Assembly: GCA_002840275.1 (NCBI GenBank) | Contig: PHAB01000014.1 | Span: forward strand, 1 to 64,000 | Length of the DNA stretch: 64,000 bases | Direction: 5' to 3' | Source of the DNA: Firmicutes bacterium HGW-Firmicutes-14 | GTDB taxonomy: Bacteria > Bacillota > Thermincolia > Thermincolales > UBA2595 | Shown: one piece after another, positions 7,451 through 57,902 of the stretch | Position numbering within the stretch: the first letter of the stretch is position 1 | Layout: each line of letters begins with the position of its first letter | Made by a program: the position numbers and the translations under genes | The notes under the pieces: generated by a model | Told to the model about the DNA's origin: nothing | Database searches by the model: none | Seen by the model: only the letters and a program-made list of their open reading frames with translations

Positions 7451-8056
7451 ATGTCAAAGAAACCCACAGAAGTACGCAAAAAACAGATAATTGAAGCAGC
7501 ACTGGACATCATCGCTGAAAAAGGTGTAAGCGGTCTGACAACAGCAGAAACCGCTGAAATGGTAGGTTTTACCGAGGCAGCCCTGTTCAACCATTTCCCG
7601 TCCAAAACGGAGATACTTAGGGCGGCGGTCAATCATGCCCATCAGTCCCTTTTTAGCGGAATTCATGATATAACCGGACAGGATTTGGGACCCCTGACCA
7701 AACTTGAGGCAATACTGAAATACCAGTTATCTTTTCTTAAGAAAAACCGGGGCATTCCCAGGATAATTTTTTCCGATGAACTTCACCTAAAAAATAAGGA
7801 CCTGAAGGCTCTCCTTGTCAATAACCATGAAAAATATATGAATGTCATTACCGCGGTTATCGAGGAAGGGATATTCAGCGGGTTATTCAGGACTGACCTT
7901 GATGCCAGGATGGGGGCCAAGGCATTTTTCGGCCTGATTCAGAATGTCATGTTCAGTTCTTCACTGCACAGCGCCTCAACTGACCCCGGGGACCAGTTTG
8001 AGCCTATAAAACGATTCTTACGGGGCAGTTTTATCGCCCGCAGCCATTGTGGTTAA
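7451..8056 (+). CDS. TetR/AcrR-family transcriptional regulator
   Basis: A 201-residue repressor-type protein. Residues 8-54 form the TetR DNA-binding domain (RKKQIIEAALDIIAEKGVSG...TAEMVGFTEAALFNHFPSK), and the remainder is an all-helical ligand/dimer domain. The ATG at 7451 is chosen because AGGAGGTGA ends 5 nt before it; a GTG at 7442 lies inside the ribosome site. No efflux gene is adjacent. The next gene is spoVG, whose promoter contains a TetR-like palindrome, so spoVG or its leader may be a target. The ligand is unknown. Confidence 0.85.
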   Translation: MSKKPTEVRKKQIIEAALDIIAEKGVSGLTTAETAEMVGFTEAALFNHFPSKTEILRAAVNHAHQSLFSGIHDITGQDLGPLTKLEAILKYQLSFLKKNRGIPRIIFSDELHLKNKDLKALLVNNHEKYMNVITAVIEEGIFSGLFRTDLDARMGAKAFFGLIQNVMFSSSLHSASTDPGDQFEPIKRFLRGSFIARSHCG

Positions 8057-8148: not shown

Positions 8149-8178
8149 TTGACAACGAACAGGTGTTCGTGGTATTAT
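8149..8178 (+). promoter_or_regulatory. spoVG promoter with embedded palindromic operator
   Basis: TTGACA (8149-8154) and TATTAT (8173-8178) are 18 bp apart. The spacer contains the palindrome ACGAACAGGTGTTCGT (8155-8170; arms ACGAAC and GTTCGT). A dyad of this form between -35 and -10 is typical of TetR-family operators, and a tetR gene ends about 100 bp upstream. Confidence 0.65.
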
Positions 8179-8185
8179 CTGGAAT

Positions 8186-8293
8186 AAGGAGGTGATACCT
8201 GGTTAACAACAAGGCAGGGATATCAGCCAGCACTTTACGGGCCCGGTGCTGGATACTAAAACCGCCCTTAATAACAAAGAACCAGGTAACAAG
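8186..8293 (+). promoter_or_regulatory. spoVG leader with split Shine-Dalgarno and 9-bp looping stem
   Basis: A perfect 10-nt Shine-Dalgarno, AAGGAGGTGA (8186-8195), has no ATG, GTG or TTG at usable spacing. It is immediately followed by TACCTGGTT (8196-8204), the exact complement of AACCAGGTA (8280-8288), which ends 5 nt before the spoVG ATG (8294). Pairing would loop out about 75 nt and put the strong site next to the start. The loop holds another hairpin, CCAGCAC...GTGCTGG. Alternatively, a 32-codon leader from CTG at 8199 would end in a TGA overlapping the spoVG ATG. Confidence 0.5.
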
Positions 8294-8548
8294 ATGAACA
8301 TTACTGAAATTAGAATGAGAAAGAATCTGACAGATTCAAATATTAAGGCTTTTGCATCCATAACCATCGATGATTCACTGGTAGTCCACGATATCAAAAT
8401 AATTGAGGGAAAAAACGGGCTTTTTATCTCCATGCCGAGCAAAAAGGTTGGCGAACGTTATATAGATATTTCACACCCTGTTACCGCCCACAGCCGGTCG
8501 GTCCTGGTCGATTCACTCCTGGAGGAATACCAGAGACAACTTGCCTAA
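8294..8548 (+). CDS. spoVG: Septation/sporulation regulator SpoVG
   Basis: An 84-residue protein starting MNITEIRMRKNLTDSNIKAF, with the SpoVG core (ASITIDDSLVVHDIKIIEG, LFISMPSKKVGERYIDISHPV). SpoVG proteins bind nucleic acids and influence septation, sporulation and expression of many genes. Length and start match the family; a GTG at 8246 would add a non-homologous 16-residue tail. The only nearby ribosome-site match is a weak AGGT, itself buried in the predicted leader stem. It is monocistronic, ended by a hairpin at 8577. Confidence 0.95.
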   Translation: MNITEIRMRKNLTDSNIKAFASITIDDSLVVHDIKIIEGKNGLFISMPSKKVGERYIDISHPVTAHSRSVLVDSLLEEYQRQLA

Positions 8549-8576: not shown

Positions 8577-8625
8577 AAAAAAGGACCTGGAAGCAAGGGT
8601 GAGCCTTACTTTACCAGGTCCTTTT
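8577..8625. terminator. Bidirectional terminator between spoVG and glutaredoxin genes
   Basis: AAAAGGACCTGG and CCAGGTCCTTTT are perfect 12-nt arms around a 23-nt loop, with A-run and T-run flanks that serve both strands. Confidence 0.8.
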
Positions 8626-11850: not shown

Positions 11851-11924
11851 TAATCAGTTAATCCTTTATGTATTACTATATATCTTTATATTACCACAAT
11901 CAACCTAAAAAAAACAAAAAAAAA

Positions 11925-12118
11925 TACCCCACTTATGCCGTGAGGCCGTTGTTATTTGAACCTGTGCTCAACAGGTGGGTATCAGCCCAACTGCTTTATA
12001 CTTCCTCAATCATGGAGGCTTGCATGCCACAGTCGGAGCCCAGATTCCCTTAGTATTGGTGTTGGCTCAATACTAATCGGCTGGTCACGCGCATCGCAGG
12101 GCGTTATTCCTTTTAGGT
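11925..12118 (-). ncRNA. ssrS: 6S RNA
   Basis: The gap between tcdA and aspS holds a roughly 190-nt transcript unit on the minus strand. It has a promoter (12125 region), a long self-complementary structure and a T-rich end. Segments resemble 6S RNA in order: GCCCTGCGATGCGCGTGACC, AGCCGATTAGTATTGAGCC, a central GGCATGCAAGCCTCC, CACCTGTTGAGCACAGGTTC, and ACGGCCTCACGGCATAAG just before GGGGTA and a T-run. 6S RNA mimics an open promoter and holds sigma-A RNA polymerase. The assignment is by pattern; ends are estimates. Confidence 0.8.
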
Positions 12119-15425: not shown

Positions 15426-15706
15426 CAAAAAATCCCCCGCCAATGACAGTGCAACCACACTGCCAGGGACGAGAGAATGATTCCCGCGGTACCACCCTGT
15501 TTGGACAGCCGCCGGCTGTCCCTCTTTTACCGGCATCACGGCGCCGACCGGGAAAGCTTACTTCAATTTCAGCCTTCCGGCTCCCGGGTGTCTTTCGCCA
15601 CTTTCAGCCATAGAAATGCTTCCAGTCACGACATTTCTTCCCTGTATGGCCACATGTGGTTACTCTTCCCGTTCACTGCCTTTAAAAACGGTTTATCCCA
15701 ATTTAC
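15426..15706 (-). promoter_or_regulatory. T-box riboswitch (histidine) controlling hisS-aspS
   Basis: The canonical T-box AGGGTGGTACCGCGG lies at 15498-15484 on the minus strand, followed by the CGTCCCT antiterminator partner and a terminator stem (GTCCCTGGCAGTG...) ending GGGGGATTTTTT near 15426. Uncharged tRNA binding would open the terminator. The likely specifier is CAC (His) at 15590-15588 in GAAAGACACCC, matching the first gene. Confidence 0.9.
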
Positions 15707-50084: not shown

Positions 50085-50202
50085 CCTCTTATCTGCCAGA
50101 AGATAAACTTCTGCAGGAATTGGCACCTTTCTCACATTTGAATGTGAAATGGTTGCCGGGTTTCATAGGGCCAGTCCCTCCACCTCTCTGGATAAGAGTC
50201 AC
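50085..50202 (-). promoter_or_regulatory. SAM-I (S-box) riboswitch
   Basis: On the minus strand the aptamer shows all S-box blocks in order: CTTATC-AGAGAGGTGGAGGG, ACTGGCCCTATGAAACCCGG, CAACC, a P3/P4 region (TTTCACATTCAAATGTGAGAAA), GGTGCCAATTCC, and the closing GATAAGAG. SAM would favour the terminator before the COG1900 operon. A promoter with TTGACA (50263-50258) and TACCAT (50240-50235), 17 bp apart, lies just upstream. Confidence 0.95.
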
Positions 50203-57704: not shown

Positions 57705-57716
57705 ACCAATATGTTC

Positions 57717-57795
57717 CGGCAGCCTGGCAATCATGGCACTTGCTTTAGACCCATGGCTTTGCGCCCCTGTCTTTCGGCAGGTTTGCCTTTATCGA
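57717..57795 (-). promoter_or_regulatory. Cyclic di-GMP-I (GEMM) riboswitch
   Basis: The minus strand reads AAAGGCAAACC, TGCCGAAAGACAGGGGCGCA, AAGCCATGGGTCTAAAG and ATGATTGCCAGGCTGCC. This is the GEMM-I order, with the GNRA tetraloop, the tetraloop receptor and the conserved ligand-binding G/C positions. It is followed by a terminator and the HD-GYP gene. Confidence 0.93.
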
Positions 57796-57902
57796 TTATA
57801 ATGATTTTAGAAAATCATTTCATAAACAATAGTAATTCGGTCACTATATATTATTACGATTGTATGGAAATTTTTTAAGGGGTACCTCTAATAATTGTCG
57901 TA

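What the first reader, a model, noticed from the sequence alone, without database searches (positions are those of the whole stretch)
8186..8297. Split ribosome binding site in the spoVG leader, joined by a 9-bp stem
Seen: a perfect AAGGAGGTGA (8186-8195) with no usable start nearby, then TACCTGGTT (8196-8204) exactly complementary to AACCAGGTA (8280-8288), which stops 5 nt before the spoVG ATG and covers its weak local site. Inference: when the stem forms, the strong site is brought to ideal spacing and the 75-nt loop is bypassed; factors acting on the loop hairpin would tune SpoVG. Alternative: a CTG-started 32-codon leader whose TGA overlaps the ATG.
Basis: partly seen in the sequence, partly recalled or inferred. 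Interest (0 to 1): 0.6.

Follow-up and report, generated by a model that had tools for sequence, protein, structure and literature searches.

The report
Stem-bridged ribosome site on SOS gene
In a small group of bacteria, a DNA-damage-controlled copy of the gene spoVG seems to begin its message with a strong ribosome-docking signal about 100 bases from the start codon, and a conserved RNA stem folds the two together; this resembles a trick known from phage T4 genes, and it has not been tested by experiment.

Summary
Window 8186-8195 is a perfect AAGGAGGTGA without a usable start. 8196-8204 pairs with 8280-8288, five bases before the ATG of a SpoVG-family gene. The gene is a second spoVG paralogue with orthologues in five other genomes of its family (six genomes, four genera). 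All six have the strong SD, both arms and the stem; two pairs change on both sides and stay paired, while the loop is only 38% identical between genera. RNAalifold, unprompted, returns exactly this 9-bp stem. Predicted fold: SD open, stem formed (P 0.84-1.0), SD-to-AUG spacing cut from about 100 to 7-12 nt. The CTG-started leader peptide is not conserved. Best reading: an SOS-controlled gene translated from a split (accommodated) ribosome-binding site, working like T4 genes 25 and 38, but with a 75-94 nt insert that carries a conserved GGGCCC-loop hairpin. No transcript, probing or reporter data exist here. Regulation through the loop is speculation, and the stem is so stable that it is probably formed constitutively.

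The parts
8149..8178 (+). sigma-70-type promoter: -35 TTGACA 8149-8154, 18-nt spacer, -10 TATTAT 8173-8178
   Evidence: 11 of 12 matches; TTGAC and a TAnnAT -10 present in all six orthologous leaders
8156..8169 (.). LexA/SOS box CGAACAGGTGTTCG between -35 and -10
   Evidence: only match to CGAACNNNNGTTCG with up to 1 mismatch in the window; perfect box at the same place in 6 of 6 orthologues; same consensus as B. subtilis in PMC9578287; boxes also at lexA, a Y-family polymerase and a DNA-repair radical SAM gene of this genome
8186..8195 (+). strong Shine-Dalgarno AAGGAGGTGA at the predicted 5' end of the mRNA, 7 nt after the -10 element
   Evidence: AAGGAGGTG in 6 of 6; predicted unpaired
8196..8204 (+). 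bridge stem P1, 5' arm TACCTGGTT
8205..8279 (+). 75-nt loop that the bridge bypasses
   Evidence: between-genus identity 38% in the aligned loop columns against 76-87% in the arms
8227..8252 (+). loop hairpin P3, arms 8227-8234 and 8245-8252, apical loop ending in GGGCCC (8239-8244)
   Evidence: 7-9 bp in 5 of 6 leaders with nearly every pair changed; weak (3 bp) in G002
8280..8288 (+). bridge stem P1, 3' arm AACCAGGTA, which covers the weak local SD AGGT
8294..8548 (+). spoVG paralogue (SpoVG2), 84 aa
   Evidence: Pfam PF04026 SpoVG 99.0 bits against a cut-off of 29.6; NCBIfam PRK13259 97.5 bits, under its cut-off of 108; canonical paralogue elsewhere at G000:C21, 49% identical

Best explanation
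The leader is a split (accommodated) ribosome-binding site on a LexA-controlled spoVG paralogue. After DNA damage LexA leaves the box between -35 and -10 (inferred). The transcript begins at or within a few nucleotides of AAGGAGGTG (inferred from promoter position). The 30S subunit can bind this very strong SD as soon as it emerges. When the 3' arm has been transcribed, P1 forms and loops out 75-94 nt, leaving 7-12 nt of effective spacing between GGAGG and AUG, so the distant SD serves the spoVG2 start. Shown: sequence, conservation, compensatory change and predicted fold. Inferred: that ribosomes use it, and that P1 formed is the translating (ON) state. Speculative: that the conserved GGGCCC-loop hairpin receives a regulator, perhaps SpoVG2 itself.
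For: Six of six orthologues in four genera keep SD, arms and stem. RNAalifold with no prompting returns exactly the 9 pairs; 8 of 9 are kept in all six, 2 carry changes on both sides. Cells paired 96.3% against 16.7-50.9% when the partner is slid. The bridge forms with the SD core open in all six, also at 55-65 C. Joined spacing is 8, 7, 7, 7, 12, 11 nt; 14 of 26 GGAGG-preceded starts counted in the window have 7-8 nt. The mechanism exists: T4 genes 25 and 38 (PMC3014915, passages).
Against: No transcription start, probing or reporter data. Only six sequences, three of them from one genus; core pairs never vary. In shuffle control (a), 15 of 500 shuffles reach the observed pairing and covariation score, 94 of 500 the number of two-sided pairs and 350 of 500 the further pair types. 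Spacing of 11-12 nt in G001 and G002 is long. The insert (75-94 nt) is much larger than in T4 and might not fit on the 30S. Whole-leader folding energy is not unusual in four of six (z -0.14 to -1.35). The start codon is partly paired in some predictions. The 16S 3' end was not found in any of 9 family genomes, so the anti-SD is assumed.
Confidence: 0.62

Rival explanations
1. P1 is an OFF structure: it buries the weak local SD (AGGT / AGGCGG) in its 3' arm, and a ribosome or factor at the distal SD opens it.
For: The local AGG lies in the 3' arm in 6 of 6, and the bridge is very stable. A ribosome that started translating right after the distal SD would unwind P1, as in leader-peptide control (general knowledge).
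Against: The local site is weak in all six. The distal SD would then have no start to serve: no conserved reading frame follows it. It does not explain why P1 abuts both the SD (3-4 nt from GGAGG) and the start (4-8 nt).
Confidence: 0.2
2. A short leader peptide (CTG-started, or ATG/ATA-started MPGN..) is translated from the strong SD and couples to spoVG2.
For: CTG sits 6-7 nt after GGAGG in all six, and in the window its stop overlaps the ATG. G008, G004, G007 and G002 have ATG-CCT-GGT-AAT after the SD; in G008 and G002 the frame runs through most of the leader.
Against: CTG frames have 32, 6, 21, 20, 34 and 17 codons with stops at different places. The ATG is ATA in the window and G001, lies only 2-3 nt after GGAGG, and its frame stops within the first few codons in G004 and G007. 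Single-base indels occur within one genus.
Confidence: 0.08
3. The 5' SD is only a standby or mRNA-stabilising site, and P1-P3 is a ligand- or protein-binding leader whose output is mRNA stability or another step.
For: The SD is at the predicted 5' end; the P3 hairpin with GGGCCC is conserved in 5 of 6.
Against: Joined spacing falls at normal SD-start distances in 4 of 6. No Rfam family reaches its threshold at the leader.
Confidence: 0.1

Closest known systems
Split/accommodated ribosome-binding sites of phage T4 genes 25 and 38 (review PMC3014915, passages read)
   Same: A good SD is too far from the start; an RNA structure between them brings it to functional spacing; the stem is conserved in close relatives and absent in distant ones
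   Different: T4: 27 to 11 nt and 22 to 5 nt. Here about 100 to 7-12 nt, with a 75-94 nt insert containing its own conserved hairpin, in a bacterial chromosomal SOS gene with the SD at the predicted 5' end
Split ribosome-binding site of E. coli thrS (PMC3936740, section 18 read)
   Same: A hairpin is accommodated by the ribosome and bypassed within a bipartite loading site
   Different: As described there, the distal thrS element is a single-stranded region essential for ribosome binding; here the distal element is the SD itself
SOS genes with an RNA-level second lock, such as E. coli tisB (recalled, no call)
   Same: LexA control of transcription plus a structured leader
   Different: tisB uses a standby site and an antisense RNA; no antisense RNA was looked for here
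Canonical SpoVG (PF04026), an RNA-binding protein in Listeria (PMC4959528, passages)
   Same: Same protein family, Pfam cut-off passed
   Different: Divergent second paralogue (49% identical), LexA box, split RBS; under the NCBIfam equivalog cut-off

Membership tests
T4 gene 25/38-type split ribosome-binding site | Strong SD too far from the start to work directly | tested here: met
   SD-to-ATG 108-126 nt in 6 of 6; no usable start near the SD in the window
T4 gene 25/38-type split ribosome-binding site | Intervening RNA structure brings SD and start to functional spacing | tested here: met
   In silico only: bridge P 0.84-1.0, joined spacing 7-12 nt
T4 gene 25/38-type split ribosome-binding site | Structure conserved among close relatives | tested here: met
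   6 of 6 orthologues, 2 pairs changed on both sides
T4 gene 25/38-type split ribosome-binding site | Mutations that destabilise the structure reduce translation; probing shows the structure | not testable with these tools
   needs bench work
LexA (SOS) regulon | Gram-positive SOS box CGAACN4GTTCG within the promoter | tested here: met
   perfect in 6 of 6, between -35 and -10; consensus from PMC9578287
LexA (SOS) regulon | Same box at recognised SOS genes of the same genome | tested here: met
   lexA promoter holds three boxes with one mismatch each; perfect boxes at a Y-family polymerase and at rSAM_link_UDG
LexA (SOS) regulon | LexA binding and induction by DNA damage | not testable with these tools
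   no expression data
Canonical SpoVG (NCBIfam PRK13259 equivalog) | Score above the equivalog cut-off | tested here: not met
   97.5 bits against 108; hence a SpoVG-family paralogue, not the canonical gene
Leader-peptide attenuator | Conserved short reading frame after the leader SD | tested here: not met
   CTG frames of 6-34 codons, ATG not conserved
SD-sequestering hairpin | The functional SD is base-paired | tested here: inconclusive
   GGAGG of the distal SD is predicted open in 5 of 6 leaders; in G002 only its first four bases are open, the last G has P(unpaired) 0.20; the weak local AGG is within the paired 3' arm in all six

The most novel reading that the evidence does not exclude
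A bridged-RBS switch: the SOS-induced SpoVG paralogue, of an RNA-binding family, (or an RNA partner) docks on the conserved GGGCCC-loop hairpin inside the bypassed loop and controls whether the 30S bound to the 5'-terminal SD can reach the start, so that an SOS gene has a second, translational gate built on the SD-to-start bridge.
Probability: 0.2. Interest if true: 0.75.

Novelty: new variant of a known kind. Interest (0 to 1): 0.55.

Why it matters
If true, split ribosome-binding sites are not only a phage T4 arrangement but serve a chromosomal stress gene, with an RNA insert of about 80 nt looped out between a 5'-terminal SD and the start codon. That would test how large an RNA the 30S can tolerate between SD and AUG, and it would place a SpoVG paralogue in the SOS response of this group. 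It also warns that start-site and RBS predictors, which look only near the start, misjudge such genes.

Tried and rejected
Leader peptide (CTG or ATG start): rejected, frames not conserved. Known RNA family: none at the leader. Wider spread of the element: covariance model R1 over 398 genomes of the phylum found only the same six. In the class, 6 of 10 genomes have strong matches; the weaker ones (27.6 bits or less) that I looked at, 6 of 7 loci (L066-L071; L065 not inspected), look by eye like coding sequence, an ordinary SD or a repeat. The LexA-box-to-SD pattern found one site in each of the same six of 398 genomes. An exact promoter-SD pattern over the species genomes gave 4 records, all of this family. 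Viral contigs gave 0. SOS role of spoVG in print: 15 papers hold SpoVG, LexA and SOS (listing only); no title is about a LexA-controlled spoVG. A search for a split SD in a LexA-controlled leader returned 0, and two broad phrase searches returned 0, so absence from print is weakly tested. Terminator echo: the window's own terminator has CCTGG/CCAGG arms, but the terminator-like stems of G008 and G004 do not, so taken as chance.

Full report
What is there. A perfect AAGGAGGTGA (8186-8195) is followed at once by TACCTGGTT (8196-8204), which is the exact complement of AACCAGGTA (8280-8288); ACAAG and the ATG at 8294 follow. The gene is SpoVG-family by Pfam (99.0 bits, cut-off 29.6) but under the NCBIfam cut-off for canonical SpoVG (97.5 against 108). 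The genome holds a second copy, G000:C21, 49% identical. I call the window gene spoVG2.

The promoter TTGACA-18-TATTAT (8149-8178) has a perfect CGAACAGGTGTTCG between its two boxes (8156-8169). CGAACN4GTTCG is the SOS box of B. subtilis in a review table (PMC9578287, one passage). In this genome the perfect pattern occurs at four places. One is spoVG2, one a Y-family polymerase (L034; Pfam IMS), one a DNA-repair radical SAM gene (L031; TIGR03916); the fourth (L033) was not identified. The lexA promoter carries three boxes with one mismatch each. So spoVG2 is very probably LexA-controlled. The -10 element ends 7 nt before the SD in the window and 6 nt before it in the other five, so the mRNA should begin at or just before the SD.

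Relatives. Of 61 genomes searched with the protein, 49 have a match at E <= 0.001. Five others in the same family (G008, G004, G007, G001, G002) carry an orthologue 63-70% identical. All but one of the remaining matches are 49% identical or less (the exception, one of the two reaching 50%, is G035 in another family). Neighbouring grx, rarA or RrF2 genes were found in several of these loci and support orthology. G003, G005 and G006 (61-75% complete) and G009 (99% complete) have only a canonical-like copy.

Conservation of the leader. All six leaders have the LexA box, AAGGAGGTG, AT(A/G)CCTGGT, a GGGCCCG motif and ACCAGG before the ATG. SD-to-ATG lengths are 108, 126, 126, 125, 126 and 113 nt. 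Aligned identity between the four genera is 0.94 in the SD, 0.87 and 0.76 in the arms, and 0.38 in the loop. RNAalifold on the six, without any structure given, returns only the 9-bp bridge; 8 of 9 pairs are kept in 6 of 6 and two have changes on both sides, A-U/G-C and U-A/A-U. Cells paired are 96.3%, against 16.7-50.9% for partners slid by one to three columns. The shuffle control there is modest (15 of 500 reach the pairing, the two-sided cells and the covariation score; 94 of 500 the number of two-sided pairs; 350 of 500 the further pair types), as expected from six sequences with six invariant pairs.

Chance and fold. Dinucleotide shuffles reach the window's stem in 7 of 20000, and those of the other five in 5 to 18 of 5000. 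From the predicted 5' end, the bridge core has pair probability 0.84-1.0 in all six; AAGGAG is open in all six, and the last base of GGAGG is open in five, being mostly paired in G002 (0.20). Bridge probability stays at 0.79 or more at 60 C. Forbidding the bridge costs 11.0-17.3 kcal/mol. Against: total leader folding energy is unremarkable in four of six (z -0.14 to -1.35) and only moderate in the window and G007 (-2.22, -2.32). If the RNA began at 8160 the bridge would drop to 0.05, which explains why a naive fold hides it. The ATG is about half paired in one window prediction, and its last two bases are mostly paired in G008.

Loop. Inside lies a hairpin whose apical loop ends in GGGCCC: 7-9 pairs in 5 of 6, with nearly every pair changed between genera. 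Shuffles reach it in 2 to 50 of 5000 in those five, but in 1344 of 5000 in G002, where it is weak. GGGCCC is self-complementary; whether that means dimerisation or a binding site is unknown.

Distribution. A covariance model hits strongly in 6 of 10 genomes of the class and in only those six of 398 genomes of the phylum. The LexA-box-to-SD pattern occurs once in each of the same six of 398 genomes. The promoter-SD pattern in the species-genome collection gave 4 records, all of this family; viral contigs gave 0.

Mechanism. Joined spacing from GGAGG to ATG, stem excluded, is 8, 7, 7, 7, 12 and 11 nt. In the window 14 of 26 GGAGG-preceded starts counted (out of 76 long open frames examined, many of them not genes) have 7-8 nt, and the four ordinary AGGAGGTG sites have 7-11 nt. 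[quoted passage not shown] The thrS split site (PMC3936740, section 18) shows that ribosomes accommodate a hairpin, though its distal element is a single-stranded region. The main rival, an OFF stem over the weak local AGG, leaves the invariant distal SD without a job, because no reading frame after it is conserved. It cannot be excluded without arm-swap reporters.

Verdict. Observation confirmed; interpretation partly supported and extended by LexA control. New variant of a known kind; the mechanism is not experimentally shown.

Noticed in passing
window 11922-12105 (-): 6S RNA by Rfam, gathering threshold passed
   Followed up: no
window 15462-15685 (-), 50086-50198 (-), 57714-57796 (-): T-box leader, SAM riboswitch and c-di-GMP-I-GGC riboswitch by Rfam
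   Followed up: no
window 8580-8625 (+): Terminator-like stem after spoVG2 (GGACCTGG/CCAGGTCC, then T-rich) repeats the CCTGG/CCAGG of the leader arms, so leader and terminator could pair; not seen in G008 or G004
   Followed up: partly
window 7454-8056 (+): TetR-family regulator just upstream of spoVG2; found only in the window's locus among those searched
   Followed up: partly
L045, about 80-170 bases upstream of the start of the lexA match: Three SOS-type boxes in the lexA promoter of this genome, each with one mismatch to CGAACNNNNGTTCG
   Followed up: no
L051 and L055 near position 1500: SOS-type boxes (CGAACATGGGTTCG; CGAACCTATGTTCG) near the start of a transposon-type reading frame in G004 and G007; the gene type is my guess from reading the sequence, not searched
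   Followed up: no
L031: Perfect SOS box directly upstream of a rSAM_link_UDG gene (TIGR03916), suggesting that this DNA-modification/repair protein is SOS-controlled here
   Followed up: partly
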